NCBI RefSeq assembly: GCF_000620665.1
Contig: NZ_JIAU01000005.1
Coordinates: 239,501-303,500, forward strand
Source: Sphingomonas sp. URHD0057
GTDB lineage: Bacteria; Pseudomonadota; Alphaproteobacteria; Sphingomonadales; Sphingomonadaceae
Reading direction: 5' to 3'
Length of the DNA: 64,000 nt
In this document: positions 17,088 to 25,759 of the stretch, piece after piece
Position numbering within the stretch: the first letter of the stretch is position 1
Layout: each line of letters opens with the position of its first letter
Made by a program: the position numbers and the translations under genes
Notes under the pieces: generated by a model
What the model saw: the letters and a program-made list of their open reading frames with translations, nothing else
What the model was told of the DNA's origin: nothing
Databases searched by the model: none

Positions 17088-18923
17088 ATGACCAAAATCG
17101 ACCGCATCCGTAATTTCTCGATCATCGCCCACATCGACCATGGAAAGTCGACGCTCGCCGACCGGCTGATCCAGGCCACCGGCGGGCTCACCGACCGCGA
17201 GATGAGCGGCAACCAGCAAGTGCTCGACAACATGGACATCGAGCGCGAGCGCGGGATCACCATCAAGGCGCAGACCGTGCGGCTGGAGTGGCAGGCGGCC
17301 GACGGCGAGACCTATGAGCTCAACCTCATGGACACGCCCGGCCACGTCGACTTCGCCTATGAGGTGTCGCGCAGCCTCGCCGCGTGCGAGGGCGCGCTGT
17401 TGGTCGTGGACGCCGCCCAAGGCGTCGAAGCGCAGACCCTGGCCAATGTATATCAAAGCATCGAGCACGACCACGAGATCGTGCCCGTCATCAACAAGAT
17501 CGACCTCCCCGCCGCCGACCCCGAGGGCGTGCGCCAGGAGATCGAGGAGATCATCGGCCTCGACGCCAGCCACGCCGTTCTCGCCAGCGCCAAGACCGGC
17601 ATCGGCATCGCCGACGTGCTGCAGGCGATCGTCGATACCATCCCGCCCCCCAAAGGCGACGCCGCCGCGCCCTTGAAGGCGATGCTCGTCGACAGCTGGT
17701 ACGACCCCTATCTCGGCGTCGTCATCCTCGTCCGGGTCATCGACGGGTGCTTGCGCAAGGGCGCGCAGGTCAAGTTCATGGCCGCCGGCACCACCCACCT
17801 CGTCGACCGCGTCGGCTGCTTCCGCCCCAAGATCGAGCAATTGAGCGAGCTCGGCCCCGGTGAGATCGGCTTCATCACCGCGCAGATCAAGGAGGTCGCC
17901 GAGACTCGCGTCGGCGACACCATCACCGATGCCAAGCGTCCCGCGCGCGAGGCGCTGCCCGGCTTCAAGGAGGTCCAGCCGGTCGTCTTCTGCGGCCTGT
18001 TTCCGGTCGACGCCAACGACTTCGAGAAGCTCCGCGACAGCCTCTACAAGCTGCGCCTCAACGACGCCTCGTTCAGCTTCGAGACCGAGAGCAGCGCCGC
18101 GCTCGGCTTCGGGTTTCGGTGCGGGTTCCTCGGCCTCCTCCACCTCGAGATCATCCAGGAGCGGCTGACGCGCGAGTACGACCTCGACCTCATCACCACC
18201 GCGCCGAGCGTCGTCTACAAGATGCACCTCACCCATTCGAAGAGCGAGGACGCGAAGACGATCGAGCTCCACAACCCCGCCGACATGCCCGACCCCAACC
18301 GCATCGCCAGCATCGAGGAGCCGTGGATCCTCGCCACCATCTACACCCCCGACGAATATTTGGGCGGCATCCTCAAGCTGTGCCAGGACCGCCGCGGCGT
18401 CCAGCGCGAGCTGAGCTATGTCGGCACCGGCAGCCACGCCCGCGCGCTGCTCAAGTACGAGCTGCCGCTGAACGAAGTGGTGTTCGATTTCTACGACCGC
18501 CTGAAGAGCATCTCCAAGGGCTATGCGAGCTTCGACTATGAGCAGATCGGGACCCGCGAGGGCGACCTCGTCAAGATGAGCATCCTCGTCAACGAGGAGC
18601 CGGTCGACGCCTTGAGCATGATCGTCCACCGCGGCACCGCCGAGGCGCGCGGCCGCGGCATGTGCGAGCGGTTGAAGGAGCTGATCCCGCGCCATCTGTT
18701 CAAGATCCCGATCCAGGCCGCGATCGGCGGCAAGGTCATCGCCCGCGAGACGATCAGCGCCATGCGCAAGGACGTCACCGCCAAATGCTACGGCGGCGAC
18801 GCCACCCGCAAACGCAAGCTCCTCGAGAAGCAGAAGAAGGGCAAGGCGCGCATGCGCGAATACGGCAACGTCTCGATACCGCAGGAGGCGTTCATTGCGG
18901 CGCTGAGAATGGGGGAAGAATAA
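17088..18923 (+). CDS. lepA: elongation factor 4 (LepA), ribosome-associated GTPase
   Basis: 611 residues, the usual LepA length. The start is the ATG at 17088 ([20 protein letters not shown]); an in-frame TTG further upstream is ignored. The GTPase domain shows the P-loop [26 protein letters not shown] (G3) and [10 protein letters not shown] (G4). EF-G-like domains follow, and the LepA-specific C-terminal domain ends [22 protein letters not shown] in two parts. LepA assists translation under stress and in ribosome assembly. Its promoter region is shared with the divergent CsgG-like gene. A decayed second copy of its 3' end lies at about 19838-19910. Confidence 0.97.
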
Positions 18924-19920: not shown

Positions 19921-20937
19921 TCACAGCTCGACGGGGGTGAGCGCCGGGTAATGGCGATAATAAGTTTTGAAGTTCTCCAAAAACCCAGGCATTTCAGTGA
20001 CAACGTCGAAGTTGAAGCCAACGTCGCTCTCAATCTGTGACGCCGATTTTGATGAGTTACGCTCCAAATATAGCCGCTCCCTTATCGTGAGATCGGCAAC
20101 GGCTAGGTACTTCACGTCCGACCAGGCAGATGACGCGAATGGCCATTCGGACAATCCCAGCCTCGCTCGCATCAGCGATGCTTCAAGAAGGTTCGCGCGC
20201 ATCGCTGTCATTGATAACATCTGCTGGCCGTCGGCATACCTCGTGATCGAGAGCGGCTCGAGAACGTCGCCAGTCGTTGCCGACACGGCATTCCCGGCTG
20301 CCTTTCCGAATGCACGAGATATGATCGAAGCCACGAGTTCGGGCCCCATGTCCTGTTCCTTCGCGTTGCTCGGAAAATACTCCCCAAGTACGCTCTTCAT
20401 CCTCTCGAAAGCATTTTTCTGGAGCTGCTCTTTAGCGACCGGTTTACCGGCAATGCGGTTTGGGCCCGACCAGTAGCCATACTCGGCATTGACTGTCACG
20501 CGAACGACATCGCGATGCTTAAATTGGCCCACGAGCGTCTCGAATTCGCGTATTTGGACAAACAAATCCTTCGGTGCCGTGTAATCCAACCAAACGATGT
20601 ATCCCTCGGCATCGTTTATACCGGATGATTGCAAAGCGGAATCCACGTCCGCGACCAGTGCGCCCGAAGTGAACTGTCGGCATTTGCACTCATCGATAGG
20701 CCTATTCCACTCCTGCCTGGCGACGATTCCGGCGTCCATATCGAATGCCAAAAGACGGGTGATTCCTAGCAGCCGATGAACGAGCTTTTGGTCCTCCAAT
20801 GCGTACGCCGCCATGCTGACATAGGCGTGATCGACCATGTCCCCGTAGCGCTCACACCGCAGCAGCAGATCCATGAAAAGACGGCGGTCGACGGCTTTGT
20901 TCGGCCTAAGGCGATAGGGCAGCGCAGCACCGCTCAT
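19921..20937 (-). CDS. unknown 338-residue protein of the methyltransferase/Vsr/ATPase island
   Basis: Not recognised. It has no signal peptide or membrane segment. Features: SGAALPYRLRPNKAVDRRLFMD at the start in two parts, FDMDAGIVARQEWNRP (about 85-100), YIVWLDYTAP (about 131-140) followed by LFVQIREFETLV, then DVVRVTVNAEYGYW (about 160-173). The C terminus has IRERLYLERN. The WLDYT-plus-amphipathic-helix pattern suggests an alpha/beta (Rossmann-like) core, but no cofactor or nuclease motif is certain. It starts inside the stop of the ATPase gene (ATGA overlap) and is the last gene of the operon, the position where an effector or specificity protein could sit. Codon and base use are A+T-richer than flanking genes. 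Confidence 0.85.
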   Translation of the reverse strand: MSGAALPYRLRPNKAVDRRLFMDLLLRCERYGDMVDHAYVSMAAYALEDQKLVHRLLGITRLLAFDMDAGIVARQEWNRPIDECKCRQFTSGALVADVDSALQSSGINDAEGYIVWLDYTAPKDLFVQIREFETLVGQFKHRDVVRVTVNAEYGYWSGPNRIAGKPVAKEQLQKNAFERMKSVLGEYFPSNAKEQDMGPELVASIISRAFGKAAGNAVSATTGDVLEPLSITRYADGQQMLSMTAMRANLLEASLMRARLGLSEWPFASSAWSDVKYLAVADLTIRERLYLERNSSKSASQIESDVGFNFDVVTEMPGFLENFKTYYRHYPALTPVEL

Positions 20938-22436
20938 TCGGCCGCTTCCTGATAGAGGGCCACCTCGCGACGAAAGGCCTCTTCTCCTACTTCCGCGGGT
21001 TTAACCGCCACATCGTCAAAGTACGCAATCGCCAATGTACTGAGATGGGACTTGAGCGCTACAAAACTCACGCGACTTTTTGTCTTTTCTGCAGCCGGAA
21101 CGGGCAGTTTCGGCGCAAAACGCCTTACCGTTGAGAATTTATGCGTTGCGCGCATCGGCGCTCTCTTGAGCGAAGCACGGAGATCAGCGAGCGAGATGTA
21201 CTCAGAGCCTTGGTAGAGCGCCTCTAGACCCTCCTCAAACTTCTTCCATTTATTTGTGAACGTGGTCAGTCCCTTGGTCGCTTCCTTCATAAGGTCCTTG
21301 ACCTTTGAATAGAGCGAAGACGTTCCATCGATTCCCCGCTTTGTAGTTGTAAGCGGCAGCAACTCCGGATTCGCGGACTTTAGCAAAACAAGGCCGGTAA
21401 TTGCGATAAATTGGCCGTGATAATTTGGTACGGACCCCTCGCCCCACCCGGTCAAGCGCGTACGATCTTTCCAAACGATCACCCTATCGTTGCAAGCGAC
21501 AGTCCAACCCGCGTCGTCAGTTGATCCTCTCGTCTCCTCTTCTCGTTCCCGTTCCTCCTCCGAAGGGAGCTCGCGATAAAGACCGGCATAAATTTCGATC
21601 TGAACGCCATCGAGCTCCCCCACGTAGAGATACGGCGCAATGCCGTCTTGGTCTTCCGCTAGGCCGCGCTTGCGCAAAAGTTTGAATTCGTTGGGATCGA
21701 TCGCGTCCGGCACTGGCTGATCGGAGGACGTTCTGACTGTAACGGCAAAGCCCTTATCCATGATAAGCGCGTAATTGCGCGCAATCTCTTCGCGAAGATC
21801 GCGCGCAAAATATTCGCTCTCAAACTCCGCCTTCACAGCCGGATTGAGACGCTCGATAACAATGCGAGTTCGGCCCTTTGTCAGTACGCCGGGAGGCAAC
21901 CGAAGCATGGGCAGCCGTTTCCAATCTTCAGCTCGCAGCCATGACGGAGTGATCCGAACGCGGAACGCGTCATCATTCCATGAATCCACAGTAGCGTCGG
22001 TGCCAATTTTGAAAATGGCACGTTTCATACCGATCCCGTACATACCCACTGTTGCGATCGCGTCCGCGCCTTTGATTGGATCGGGTTTGCCGATGGCGAA
22101 AGCCGACTTCTCGGCTATTTTGATGGGGATTCCTCCGCAGTTGTCCTCGATGATAAACTGGTCGCCGGAGACAACGATGTCGGCTCTATAACCCCTGTAA
22201 GGTGTCCGCTTCTTCAGATCTGGATTTACGGAGCGCAAGATACCGTCAACACAATTGTCCAGCAGGTCAAGGATGGTGTCTTTAAGCTCGATATCTCGAA
22301 CCAACATGTCGACGAAGAATTGTTTTGTAGGGGACGCGTTGGCCGTTCTTCCTCGTTTTGCGCCAGCACTGGCCATCGCGATGCGCCTATTCGACCTGAT
22401 CGCGATCTGCCGTTTAGCCACTCGCTTGACAGTCAT
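20934..22436 (-). CDS. GHKL (MORC/Hsp90-like) ATPase
   Basis: 500 residues. An N-terminal GHKL ATP-binding fold is shown by DTILDLLDNCVDGI (motif I Asn/Asp at about 60-66), FIIEDNCGGIPI (Asp and glycines of motif II at about 95-105) and VGMYGIGMKRAIFKIG (G-x-G-x-K motif III at about 127-142). This matches the MORC/HATPase_c_3 group, which in bacteria occurs beside 5-methylcytosine methylases and Vsr nucleases. The C-terminal half is charged, without a known domain. Start options are the ATG at 22436, directly after the vsr stop, and the ATG at 22376. It probably remodels DNA or a complex in an ATP-dependent way. Confidence 0.85.
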   Translation of the reverse strand: MTVKRVAKRQIAIRSNRRIAMASAGAKRGRTANASPTKQFFVDMLVRDIELKDTILDLLDNCVDGILRSVNPDLKKRTPYRGYRADIVVSGDQFIIEDNCGGIPIKIAEKSAFAIGKPDPIKGADAIATVGMYGIGMKRAIFKIGTDATVDSWNDDAFRVRITPSWLRAEDWKRLPMLRLPPGVLTKGRTRIVIERLNPAVKAEFESEYFARDLREEIARNYALIMDKGFAVTVRTSSDQPVPDAIDPNEFKLLRKRGLAEDQDGIAPYLYVGELDGVQIEIYAGLYRELPSEEEREREEETRGSTDDAGWTVACNDRVIVWKDRTRLTGWGEGSVPNYHGQFIAITGLVLLKSANPELLPLTTTKRGIDGTSSLYSKVKDLMKEATKGLTTFTNKWKKFEEGLEALYQGSEYISLADLRASLKRAPMRATHKFSTVRRFAPKLPVPAAEKTKSRVSFVALKSHLSTLAIAYFDDVAVKPAEVGEEAFRREVALYQEAAE

Positions 22437-22892
22437 TCACTTACCCTTCCGTGACTTCGACGGTCCGCCGAGCGCCGGGCCTGCTTCATTGAATATTCGT
22501 TTGAGCGCGTTTGCAAGTTGCGCGTCGTCTTTGGTCTCGCACTCCCAAATGATCGCAGGCGACCATCCCAAGTTGACTAATGCCGCGCTCATCTTTGCGT
22601 CACGATCGACGTTGGAATCGAACTTTGCACGCCAATACTCAGTCCTTGATTTGGGCGTCGAGGCTTTCGGGCACCCCGGATGCCGGTGCCAAAAACATCC
22701 GTGAACGAACAACGCCAAGCGGTGCTTTGGGAAAACCAAGTCCGGTTTGCCAGGAAGGTCTTTCCGGTGGAGCCGAAATCGCAGTCCAAGCCGATGCGTC
22801 GCTCGTCTCACGCGCATTTCAGGGCTCGTGTGCTTGGCGCGCACCCGCGACATGAGCCACGAGCGGCGTTCCGGAGAAATGTGATCGACCAC
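22437..22892 (-). CDS. vsr: Vsr-type DNA mismatch endonuclease
   Basis: 151 residues from a GTG at 22892. It has ISPERRSWLMSRVRAKHTSPE, typical of the Vsr N terminus, here in two overlapping pieces. The catalytic Asp is in GKPDLVFPKHR (about 48-58), with the zinc and active-site His/Cys cluster HGCFWHRHPGCP (about 64-75). The tail GWSPAIIWECE also fits. Vsr nicks T:G mismatches that arise when 5-methylcytosine deaminates. It lies 3 nt after the methyltransferase stop and directly before the ATPase gene, so all are co-transcribed. It may act as repair enzyme for the methylase or as nuclease of a restriction-type system. Confidence 0.93.
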   Translation of the reverse strand: MVDHISPERRSWLMSRVRAKHTSPEMRVRRATHRLGLRFRLHRKDLPGKPDLVFPKHRLALFVHGCFWHRHPGCPKASTPKSRTEYWRAKFDSNVDRDAKMSAALVNLGWSPAIIWECETKDDAQLANALKRIFNEAGPALGGPSKSRKGK

Positions 22893-22895
22893 CGG

Positions 22896-23972
22896 TTAGG
22901 CAGCCTTCTTAGATTCCTCCGCAATTTCAAGCTTTTCCGCTACGACCCGGAGCACTGCCTCGGCGATAATTGGCGAGACGCTATTTCCGATCATTCGGAA
23001 ACTGTGCCAGATCGTTGGATGGAAGAGATGATCGTCCGGAAAGCCTTGAAGGCGCGCCGCTTCCCTGACGGTGATCACTCTGTCTTCTTCGGGGTGGATC
23101 GGCCGAACCGATTGATATGAGCCCATGTCTGCGCCGGTGCCGGCGCGCAGTGTCGGGCACTGCCCATTCCAAGTTAATCGCGGATGCCTTCCAACCGGGT
23201 CGATTTTGCCCGGCGCCAATTTCGAAAAACGACCACTGACCTTGGCAGTGTGTCGCGTTCTCTGGTTCCCCGTGAAAATGCCATCGGGCGCCACAAGAGC
23301 AGCCGCATAATCGGAAAGCGTCACGGACGGCGGTATCTTCCAACGATCATTGCAATCGTCTGTTGCAAGCTTCGTTGCATTGAAGAGCCCGGAAAAAGCA
23401 TCGGCAACGGTAGCTGGCGAAGACTTCGCAAGCTCGAAATCATCCGGCCAAATCGAGTCGCATCGCGCCGGATCGTATCCGACCACGAACATGCGCTTCC
23501 TGCTTGTAGCGGCACCGAAGTCTGCCGCGTCCAAAACCAAGGGCTTCACTAGAAAATAATCGGTGGGAAGAGACCCGATTGCTGATTCAAGTTCCGGGAG
23601 GGCATCTGCAAATGCGAGCCCCTGAACATTCTCCATTACGAACGCACGCGGTTTCGCTTCAGCGACCAGGCGAAAGAAGTGTCCGAGCAGCGTACGACGT
23701 GGATCGGACTTGTCGCGACGGCCTATAGAGCTGAAGCCCTGACAAGGCGGACCACCGAACATGAGGTCAACCTCTCCACCAGCAGCGATAAAGAGTTCGC
23801 CACCGGGCGTTTCTGAGAGATCCGCAAGAACGAGCTTCGTCTCGGGAAAATTCGTTTTGAACGACGACGTGAGGATTGGATCCTTGTCGAATGCAGCGAT
23901 GACGTCGAAGCCAGCCGCATGTGCGCCGCGAGAGAATCCGCCCGCTCCACAAAATAGATCGATCGCTCGCAT
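22896..23972 (-). CDS. dcm: DNA (cytosine-5-)-methyltransferase
   Basis: 358 residues from the ATG at 23972, preceded by GAGGGG; the longer frame to 24014 has no ribosome-binding site. Motif I is DLFCGAGGFSRGAHAAGF, motif IV GGPPCQGFSSIGRR with the catalytic Pro-Cys, motif VI MENVQG, motif VIII RKRMFVVGYD and motif X IGNSVSPIIAEAV, preceded by RLQGFPDD. All core motifs are intact, so an active 5-methylcytosine methylase is expected. The target-recognition region lies at about 190-280; the recognised sequence cannot be read from it. First gene of a four-gene minus-strand operon with vsr, a GHKL ATPase and an unknown protein. Confidence 0.93.
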   Translation of the reverse strand: MRAIDLFCGAGGFSRGAHAAGFDVIAAFDKDPILTSSFKTNFPETKLVLADLSETPGGELFIAAGGEVDLMFGGPPCQGFSSIGRRDKSDPRRTLLGHFFRLVAEAKPRAFVMENVQGLAFADALPELESAIGSLPTDYFLVKPLVLDAADFGAATSRKRMFVVGYDPARCDSIWPDDFELAKSSPATVADAFSGLFNATKLATDDCNDRWKIPPSVTLSDYAAALVAPDGIFTGNQRTRHTAKVSGRFSKLAPGKIDPVGRHPRLTWNGQCPTLRAGTGADMGSYQSVRPIHPEEDRVITVREAARLQGFPDDHLFHPTIWHSFRMIGNSVSPIIAEAVLRVVAEKLEIAEESKKAA

Positions 23973-24760: not shown

Positions 24761-24945
24761 CGGCTTCCCCCAATCCTCGGCTCAACAATCACCTCCGGTC
24801 GCCGCGATCTCGGCTCCCTCGGCAGCGCGCCGTTGGGGATCCACGCCCGGGTTCCTCGCTCGCGGACCGCCTCGGCAAACTCGCGGCTGTTGAGCGAGAA
24901 GGTGCGCATGTTGGGCGCGCTCGGCTGCTCAGGCTCAGTCTTCAT
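24757..24945 (-). CDS. unknown 62-residue protein, middle of a three-gene operon
   Basis: 62 residues from the ATG at 24945 (MKTEPEQPSAPNMRTFSLNS). It contains REFAEAVRERGTRAWIPNG followed by a Pro/Arg-rich tail. No known family. The start lies 11 nt inside the end of the 274-residue gene and the stop overlaps the next gene by 4 nt, which supports real translation in spite of the size. Confidence 0.55.
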   Translation of the reverse strand: MKTEPEQPSAPNMRTFSLNSREFAEAVRERGTRAWIPNGALPREPRSRRPEVIVEPRIGGSR

Positions 24946-25759
24946 TCCCATCTCCCTCATCCCAATTGACGGCCTCCAATCCCTGCTTCGACCGATACTC
25001 ATCGATCGCCGCCCGCATCTCCGCTTTCTTGTCGGGCCCGTAGCCGCACTCGCCGTACGACCAGCCGCTTTCCGCGAGCAGCACCATGTCGGGCTGGCGC
25101 TGGTTGGAGCTGCGCCACGGCTCGTCGGCCTGGGCCTCGAGCGCGGAGGCCTTGTCCCAGTCGATCGGCAGCTCGGTCAGGATCTCGAACGCGGCGCGCT
25201 TGGCGGCGCTGGCGCTGATCTCCTGCAGATAGATGCGGCGGATGCGCAGCAGCTTGCCGGCGATGCTCTCCCGCGCTTCCTCGGCCCGGCGGTGGTAGGA
25301 GGCCTCGTCTTCCCACTCGCCATATTCGTTCATCACCATCCCCTCATCCCCTTCAGCAGCAGAGGGCCAGGGGGAGGGGGCATGCTTGCGCCGATGGTCG
25401 ATCGACGGCGGCCGGGTACCGGGCGCCACAAAGTCCATGTCCGCTTGCTCCGCCTGGCGCCGCTTGGCGATCTCGACCGCCGCATGCCACGACGCGCGGA
25501 AGCTCGCCGCCAGCGGGGAGCGATAGAGCTTCATCATCCCGGTCAGGTTCTTGCCCATCTCGTCGCACGCCCGGCCCGGCGACCCGCCCAGGGCCAGCCT
25601 GGCGATGAACTCGCGTTGCAGGTCGGGCGTCCACCCGCCCTCGACGATGCGCTTGCGCGGCACCGGCTCGAACGCGAGCAAAGCGGCAATTTCGGGGTCG
25701 GCGGTATTTTCGGCGGCGGGGTAGGCGACGTCGGTCGCCGGTTGTGGAGAATCGCTCAT
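24935..25759 (-). CDS. unknown 274-residue protein with a possible helix-turn-helix
   Basis: 274 residues. The segment GGWTPDLQREFIARLALGGS and the following PGRACDEMGKNLTGMMKLY (about 41-79) look like a helix-turn-helix of the kind seen in phage terminase small subunits and related DNA-binding proteins. The rest is charged and ends in acidic NWDEGDGNED. There is no catalytic motif. It heads a three-gene operon with two smaller overlapping genes. No phage structural gene is nearby, so a prophage origin is not supported. Confidence 0.6.
   Translation of the reverse strand: MSDSPQPATDVAYPAAENTADPEIAALLAFEPVPRKRIVEGGWTPDLQREFIARLALGGSPGRACDEMGKNLTGMMKLYRSPLAASFRASWHAAVEIAKRRQAEQADMDFVAPGTRPPSIDHRRKHAPSPWPSAAEGDEGMVMNEYGEWEDEASYHRRAEEARESIAGKLLRIRRIYLQEISASAAKRAAFEILTELPIDWDKASALEAQADEPWRSSNQRQPDMVLLAESGWSYGECGYGPDKKAEMRAAIDEYRSKQGLEAVNWDEGDGNED

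What the first reader, a model, noticed from the sequence alone, without database searches (positions are those of the whole stretch)
19921..23972. A+T-richer Dcm-Vsr-GHKL ATPase-unknown operon: candidate defence system
Four minus-strand genes are spaced by 3, 0 and -4 nt. They are a complete 5-methylcytosine methylase, a Vsr nuclease with its active site, a MORC-like GHKL ATPase and a 338-residue protein I cannot place. Bases 21241-21300 hold 27 G+C of 60, against 39 of 60 at 17701-17760 in lepA, so the block is compositionally foreign. Larger relatives known from comparative genomics add a Z1 helicase or a PD-(D/E)XK nuclease; here only the unknown protein is left, which suggests a reduced or different system.
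Basis: partly seen in the sequence, partly recalled or inferred. Interest (0 to 1): 0.78.

Follow-up and report, generated by a model that had tools for sequence, protein, structure and literature searches.

The report
MORC ATPase plus methyltransferase defence cassette
Four neighbouring bacterial genes form one copy of a widespread, apparently unnamed, probable phage-defence cassette that joins a DNA-marking enzyme to a bacterial relative of the gene-silencing MORC proteins and a second methyltransferase-like protein, often with no restriction enzyme in sight.

Summary
The operon is real at 19921-23972. Spacings and both G+C counts are as stated; the block is 55.3% G+C against 66.2% around it. 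The 'unknown' protein is Pfam PF20553 (E 8e-63) with a confident class-I Rossmann methyltransferase model (pLDDT 94). The GHKL protein carries the published MORC motif. MORC and PF20553 pair in 77 of 80 host loci (best 80 of 341 matches) and 64 of 65 viral loci; Dcm lies within 3 kb in 70 of 80 and 64 of 65, Vsr in only 33 of 80 and 9 of 65. MORC and PF20553 distances correlate at 0.84, Vsr and MORC at 0.05. None of the 12 gene clusters shared by three or more neighbourhoods is a helicase. So this is a compact type, not a remnant. In 21 of 65 viral loci the trio fills the P2 portal-gpA slot without Vsr, a published anti-phage hotspot. PADLOC-DB 2.0.0 has no model for MORC or PF20553. Best reading: Dcm marks self and MORC-PF20553 disables unmarked DNA; the effector chemistry is inferred. 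MORC restriction-modification operons were predicted in 2008: a new variant of a known kind.

The parts
19921..20937 (-). PF20553 'Methyltransf_35' protein, 338 aa; predicted class-I Rossmann methyltransferase fold; partner of the MORC
20934..22436 (-). prokaryotic MORC-family GHKL ATPase, 500 aa (alternative start Met21, base 22376)
21477..21509 (-). MORC-specific S5-domain motif GWTVACNDRVI (published pattern GhXhhpXXRhl)
   Evidence: strict pattern in 77 of 80 rows of A4 and 0 of 345 unlabelled ORFs of 400 aa or more from the same loci; pattern from PMC2292703 section 4
20791..20823 (-). PF20553 motif-I loop YVSMAAYALED; Ala at residue 43 where 83 of 85 rows of A3 have Gly
22437..22892 (-). 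Vsr endonuclease, 151 aa (optional partner)
   Evidence: PF03852 E 5.5e-28; TIGR00632 E 2.1e-40; PDB 1cw0 E 7.2e-25
22896..23972 (-). C5-cytosine DNA methyltransferase (ORF open to 24014)
   Evidence: PF00145 E 9.1e-54; PDB 3g7u E 4.9e-70

Best explanation
It is one copy of a compact, mobile, methylation-guided anti-phage cassette whose core is MORC ATPase + PF20553 + Dcm, with Vsr as an accessory. Proposed working: (1) Dcm places 5-methylcytosine at its site on self DNA. (2) MORC and PF20553 act as one complex; the MORC uses ATP to close on and loop or compact DNA. (3) The complex engages DNA that lacks the Dcm mark, such as infecting phage DNA, and stops its replication or expression; PF20553 is either a SAM-binding sensor or the enzyme that makes the block. 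(4) Vsr, where present, mainly repairs T:G mismatches left when 5-methylcytosine deaminates. Shown here: gene identities, the near-constant MORC-PF20553 pair, frequent Dcm, optional Vsr, no recurring helicase, predicted folds, MORC motif, carriage in a prophage hotspot. Inferred: phage defence itself, the physical complex, reading of methylation, and a block without a dedicated nuclease.
For: MORC-PF20553 pair in 77 of 80 host and 64 of 65 viral loci, MORC then PF20553 on one strand in 76 of 77 and 64 of 64. Reverse direction: of 19 genomes with PF20553 (window included) 18 have MORC beside it and 1 is cut by a contig end. Mirror-tree r: MORC-PF20553 0.84, Dcm-MORC 0.50, Dcm-PF20553 0.46, above all 1000 permutations (largest 0.19); Vsr-MORC 0.05 and Vsr-PF20553 0.16, inside theirs. 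21 of 65 viral loci sit between P2-type portal and replication genes, none with Vsr; in 8 of the 21 no other ORF of 80 aa or more lies in either gap, in the other 13 only ORFs of 81-183 aa. That slot is a tested anti-phage hotspot (PMC9122126 section 10). Two E. coli P2-like prophages have just these three annotated genes there, and a Pf filamentous phage carries the trio; in all three the MORC and PF20553 match my profiles (E 1e-79 or better) and the MORC motif is present. For Vsr as repair accessory: three loci without Vsr nearby (L070, L078, L101) share an HhH-GPD glycosylase-family gene instead.
Against: No phage or methylation data. Ten of 80 host loci show no Dcm within 3 kb; six are cyanobacterial loci with the pair, of which L046 and L055 lie within 0.7 kb of a contig start while L048, L054, L059 and L072 have flank on both sides, so Dcm is not always linked. 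The host sample is the best 80 of 341 matches, biased to close relatives. Vsr tracks Dcm weakly (r 0.31, permutation maximum 0.28), so it may be a working part where present. The window copy lacks the motif-I glycine, so its SAM binding may be altered. Mirror-tree values partly reflect species descent. Small ORFs beside the trio in 13 of the 21 P2 slots could encode a further part.
Confidence: 0.6

Rival explanations
1. A type II-like restriction-modification system in which Vsr (or a neighbouring HNH nuclease) is the restriction enzyme, and MORC-PF20553 loops DNA and brings the nuclease to unmethylated sites, as proposed in 2008 for MORC operons.
For: Vsr present here, in 33 of 80 host loci and 8 of 11 order-level loci; HNH_2 protein cluster in 9 of 91 neighbourhoods; 2008 model of MORCs linking recognition and cleavage sites (PMC2292703 section 6); in Caulobacter, loss of a cytosine methylase triggers a VsrA-dependent SOS response (PMC12907096 abstract and passages); a GHKL-nuclease protein, VcSduA, protects against phages and needs both activities (PMC12137116 passages).
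Against: 0 of 21 P2-slot cassettes has Vsr; Vsr does not track MORC; the lists of structural matches of the two core models named no nuclease among the rows shown.
Confidence: 0.2
2. PF20553 is an active DNA or RNA methyltransferase whose MORC-controlled methylation of phage or host nucleic acid is the toxic or abortive effector.
For: Methyltransferase fold with best match Trm1, a tRNA enzyme; residues 18, 39, 49, 74, 118, 234, 236 and 287 invariant in 85 of 85 and residue 66 acidic in 85 of 85.
Against: Profile comparison with one cyanobacterial Trm1 found nothing; motif-I glycine lost in this copy; substrate unknown.
Confidence: 0.15
3. Not defence: a stability or addiction module, or a repair or epigenetic regulator around a cytosine methylase.
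For: Dcm-Vsr pairs repair 5mC deamination, and vsr-like genes may stabilise a solitary methylase (PMC12907096 abstract).
Against: Carriage of the core without Vsr in the P2 portal-gpA slot; sporadic distribution, 12 of 396 genomes of the order, window included. That slot also holds cargo other than defence (PMC9122126 section 10), so location alone does not exclude this.
Confidence: 0.1

Closest known systems
MORC and paraMORC restriction-modification operons (Iyer, Abhiman and Aravind 2008, PMC2292703; sections 4, 5, 6 and passages read)
   Same: MORC GHKL ATPase with its signature motif, Dcm, frequent Vsr, lateral mobility; the paper notes a minority of helicase-less neighbourhoods.
   Different: In the sections and passages read no methyltransferase-like partner gene beside the DNA methylase is described (figures not held); the usual theme there is a superfamily II helicase, about 70% of neighbourhoods. 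Here MORC-PF20553 is the constant pair and no helicase recurs.
[not shown]
   Same: Cytosine methylase, and association with a protein annotated as MORC.
DISARM
   Same: The same Dcm-Vsr and MORC-PF20553 genes sit inside a DISARM operon on a Microvirga terrae plasmid; viral locus L155 has a drmD-like helicase two genes from the pair.
   Different: None of the four window genes is drmA-D; no drm homologue was labelled in the 80 host loci.
GHKL-type Shedu protein VcSduA (PMC12137116, passages read)
   Same: A GHKL ATPase in a tested anti-phage system.
   Different: Single protein fused to a PD-(D/E)XK nuclease; no methylase, no PF20553.
old/tin and other cargo of the P2 Q-A hotspot (PMC9122126 section 10)
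   Same: Same phage slot, probably the same role.
   Different: Unrelated proteins; this cassette is not named in the section I read (its tables are not held).
E. coli Dcm-Vsr very-short-patch repair
   Same: Adjacent dcm and vsr.
   Different: Vsr is optional; MORC-PF20553 is the core.
BREX (recalled, not tested)
   Same: Methylation-linked defence without a known dedicated nuclease.
   Different: No PglZ, BrxC or PglX family match among the four genes.

Membership tests
Prokaryotic MORC family | GHKL ATPase motifs | tested here: met
   HATPase_c_3 over cut-off; D57, N61, D98, G102, G134 and G136 invariant in 80 of 80
Prokaryotic MORC family | S5-domain motif GhXhhpXXRhl | tested here: met
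   GWTVACNDRVI at 310-320; 77 of 80 rows of A4; 0 of 345 background ORFs. Second, larger GHKL proteins in 8 of these loci match it too (9 of 9 rows, one locus held twice)
Prokaryotic MORC family | GHKL + S5 structure like eukaryotic MORCs | tested here: met
   [not shown]
PF20553 Methyltransf_35 | profile match over curated cut-off | tested here: met
   213 bits against 27
Class-I SAM methyltransferases | Rossmann methyltransferase fold | tested here: met
   model pLDDT 94.1; most of the 50 Foldseek and 50 VIA rows shown are SAM-dependent methyltransferases
Class-I SAM methyltransferases | glycine loop of motif I | tested here: inconclusive
   Gly43 in 83 of 85, Ala in the window copy and one other
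Class-I SAM methyltransferases | methyl transfer activity | not testable with these tools
   needs biochemistry
Classical type II restriction-modification | cognate restriction endonuclease beside the methylase | tested here: not met
   only Vsr in this operon; only the three genes annotated in the slot of two E. coli prophages
DISARM | drmA, drmB and drmC present (recalled definition) | tested here: not met
   none of the four genes is one
[not shown]
   [not shown]
VSP repair pair | Vsr acting on T:G in the Dcm site | not testable with these tools
   active-site motifs present
Anti-phage defence system | protection against phage | not testable with these tools
   context only

The most novel reading that the evidence does not exclude
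An epigenetic immune system without a nuclease: Dcm writes a self mark, and a MORC clamp with an obligate Rossmann methyltransferase-like partner reads its absence and silences invading DNA by topological entrapment. It would be a bacterial counterpart of MORC-based transposon silencing in animals and plants, spread by P2-like, lambdoid-type and filamentous prophages.
Probability: 0.3. Interest if true: 0.9.

Novelty: new variant of a known kind. Interest (0 to 1): 0.62.

Why it matters
MORC proteins silence transposons in plants and animals, and bacterial MORCs have been predicted since 2008 to work in restriction-modification. The listings of my searches showed no experiment on a protein called a bacterial MORC; the nearest tested case is the GHKL-nuclease VcSduA. 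A three-gene cassette present in E. coli prophages (45 of 5426 genomes for one version) makes the question directly testable. The cassette also looks overlooked: PADLOC-DB 2.0.0 has no model for MORC or PF20553, and a 2025 study counted the methylase of phage PfAC20 as an incomplete system (PMC11878078, passages) although the MORC and PF20553 genes sit immediately upstream. A search for PF20553 or its short name found no paper.

Tried and rejected
Reduced or degenerate larger system: rejected, because the same core without a helicase recurs in distant taxa; all 12 clusters shared by three or more neighbourhoods were scanned by one representative and none is a helicase (one, c4, has no Pfam match). 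'Unknown protein is a hidden nuclease': not supported, its model is a methyltransferase fold. Hidden nuclease at the C-terminus of the MORC: residues 374-499 are mainly helical with two short strands, but this part was not folded or searched alone. Trm1 homology by sequence: no support (one Trm1 only, found in 1 of 5 genomes searched). Solved structures for PF20553 by sequence: none at E 1 or better. Flanking repeats as integration site: none convincing. The second, larger GHKL gene as paraMORC1: I first thought so, but the 2008 paper says paraMORCs lack the MORC motif and these have it. A part of PF20553 or MORC that varies with the methylase's recognition region: none evident in 7 pair profiles; in some pairs the methylase is wholly different (L035/L038: MORC 0.68, PF20553 0.65, Dcm 0.35), which suggests the pair is not tied to one Dcm site.

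Rows dropped and limits. The host scan gave 341 relatives, best 80 kept. A3 took 84 relatives after dropping L013, L014, L020, L031, L045 (gene split in two ORFs) and L085, and a length filter. A4 took 79 of the 86 relatives listed. L020 and L029 are the same locus. An earlier, stricter count gave PF20553 76, Dcm 69 and Vsr 32 of 80 because over-long ORFs hid some genes; one search is the corrected count. Three of 80 host loci lack PF20553 (L057, L066 at a contig end, L067); in L034 it is divergent. Viral locus L191 lacks PF20553 and L155 lacks Dcm; many viral contigs are near-duplicates, so 65 is not 65 independent events. In the E. coli distant search 224 of 5426 genomes matched but none over 80% of the query; two of those loci were opened. 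In the order-level set Dcm is near the pair in 9 of 11 loci; L022 has an N6/N4 methylase instead and L014 is a short contig. Neighbour clustering used only ORFs of 100 aa or more within 7 kb, so short or fast-evolving partners could be missed.
Full report
WHAT IS THERE. Four minus-strand genes at 19921-23972 are spaced by 3, 0 and -4 nt. The block is 55.3% G+C against a mean of 66.2% (s.d. 1.0%) for 104 overlapping windows of equal length elsewhere in the 64 kb, so the compositional claim holds. From the 5' end they encode a C5-cytosine methylase (PF00145, E 9.1e-54), a Vsr endonuclease (PF03852, E 5.5e-28), a GHKL ATPase (HATPase_c_3, 26.3 bits, just above the cut-off of 25) and a protein of Pfam family PF20553 'Putative O-methyltransferase' (E 8.1e-63). 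Dcm and Vsr keep their catalytic motifs, and Vsr aligns with the solved E. coli enzyme.

A CONSERVED CORE, NOT A REMNANT. A scan of genome contigs with the MORC alignment gave 341 relatives; the best 80 were examined. PF20553 sits beside the MORC in 77 of 80, Dcm within 3 kb in 70 and Vsr in 33. Record titles range from Caulobacter, Rhizobium, Massilia and Pseudomonas to Nostoc, Chloroflexi, Paenibacillus, Planctomycetaceae and Verrucomicrobiaceae. Of 12 gene clusters shared by three or more of 91 neighbourhoods, the commonest are a phage integrase (13) and an HNH nuclease (9); none of the 12 representatives is a helicase. Conversely, PF20553 is rare: 12 of 396 genomes of the order, 5 of 385 of the class and 5 of 398 of the phylum, the window's genome counted in each. 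Of the 19 distinct genomes with it, 18 have the MORC next to it and one is cut by a contig end. Distance matrices of MORC and PF20553 correlate at 0.84, Dcm with MORC at 0.50, Dcm with PF20553 at 0.46, and Vsr with MORC at 0.05. Shared descent inflates such values, but Vsr from the same loci serves as an internal control. In some pairs with similar MORC and PF20553 the Dcm is quite different, which suggests that the pair is not tied to one recognition site.

PROPHAGE CARRIAGE POINTS TO DEFENCE. In IMG/VR 65 loci hold the MORC; 64 have PF20553, 64 have Dcm and 9 have Vsr; several are near-duplicates. In 21 of 65 the trio lies between a P2-type portal gene and the P2-type replication gene, 374-461 nt from the first and 32-717 nt from the second, and none of these 21 has Vsr. 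In 8 of the 21 neither gap holds another ORF of 80 aa or more; in 13 there are only small ORFs of 81-183 aa, whose reality I did not test. PHROGs confirm capsid, scaffold, terminase, portal and replication genes around one of them, L144. Rousset and colleagues showed that this slot, which holds old and tin in P2, is an anti-phage hotspot, though it also carries other cargo (PMC9122126, section 10). Two E. coli prophages have just these three annotated genes there, named 'ATP-binding protein, O-methyltransferase, DNA cytosine methyltransferase', and 45 of 5426 E. coli genomes carry the version of strain 7/2 at 99% identity or more. A filamentous Pseudomonas phage, PfAC20, also carries the trio. 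In all three records the MORC and PF20553 match my profiles and the MORC has the motif. The authors of the PfAC20 study counted its methylase as an incomplete system (PMC11878078, passages). PADLOC-DB 2.0.0 has no model for the MORC or PF20553 of the window or of two prophage cassettes.

LOCUS HISTORY. In two congeners the slot between lepA and the gene at 24935-25759 holds other cargo: in one a vsr-dcm-GHKL set with a different Dcm (28% identical), a Vsr 58% identical, and a GHKL protein that lacks the MORC motif and matches PADLOC type II REase models; in the other a TPR protein. The slot is thus a small hotspot. On a Microvirga terrae plasmid the same module lies inside a DISARM operon.

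HOW IT PROBABLY WORKS. Dcm supplies the self mark. MORC and PF20553, as a complex, act on DNA lacking it. C. elegans MORC-1 entraps and compacts DNA (reported in PMC8277788, passages), and the 2008 paper proposed DNA looping for bacterial MORCs. The core as found in prophages has no recognised nuclease, so I favour a block by entrapment or by PF20553 chemistry over cutting. Vsr is best seen as a repair accessory; three loci without Vsr nearby share an HhH-GPD glycosylase-family gene instead, a possible substitute. A Vsr-dependent DNA-damage response in Caulobacter lacking a cytosine methylase (PMC12907096, abstract and passages) keeps the cutting rival alive. None of this mechanism is tested here.

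NOVELTY. The kind, MORC restriction-modification, was predicted in 2008, including a helicase-less minority. What appears new is the near-constant PF20553 partner and its fold, the three-gene core without a recognised nuclease, and its use as prophage cargo. Searches. Figures and supplements were not available, so an unlabelled drawing or table row of this gene set in earlier work cannot be excluded; Rousset's supplementary tables may list it.

Noticed in passing
L117 6058-9189 (congener G261, same slot beside lepA): A different vsr-dcm-GHKL set occupies the same chromosomal slot; its 572-aa GHKL protein matches PADLOC type II REase models (E 9e-43), lacks the MORC motif, and no PF20553 protein was seen there.
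   Followed up: partly
L013 1834-19586 (Microvirga terrae plasmid pR24_2): The dcm-vsr and MORC-PF20553 genes are interleaved with DISARM genes drmD, drmA, drmC and a MmeI-type gene; viral locus L155 also has a drmD-like helicase near the pair.
   Followed up: partly
L046, L048, L054, L055, L059, L072 (Cyanobacteria): MORC-PF20553 pair without a Dcm or Vsr seen nearby (L046 and L055 are cut close by contig starts); a stand-alone version, or one with its methylase elsewhere.
   Followed up: no
L018, L029, L036, L037, L038, L047, L069, L086: A second, larger GHKL gene (546-610 aa) with the MORC motif near the module; the one tested, L029, weakly matches PD-Lambda-5_A models (E 1e-5).
   Followed up: partly
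L070, L078, L101: An HhH-GPD (endonuclease III-like) gene near the module in loci with no Vsr nearby, perhaps replacing Vsr in T:G repair.
   Followed up: partly
L037, L046, L047, L069: TniQ or TniB transposition genes near the module, suggesting transposon carriage.
   Followed up: no
G000:C3:257669-258169: The genome has a second C5-methylase match, partial (profile positions 2-165) in a 363-aa open frame, away from this locus.
   Followed up: no
L192 14971-17022: In E. coli strain 7/2 the prophage replication gene beside the cassette is annotated as a pseudogene while the cassette genes are not.
   Followed up: no
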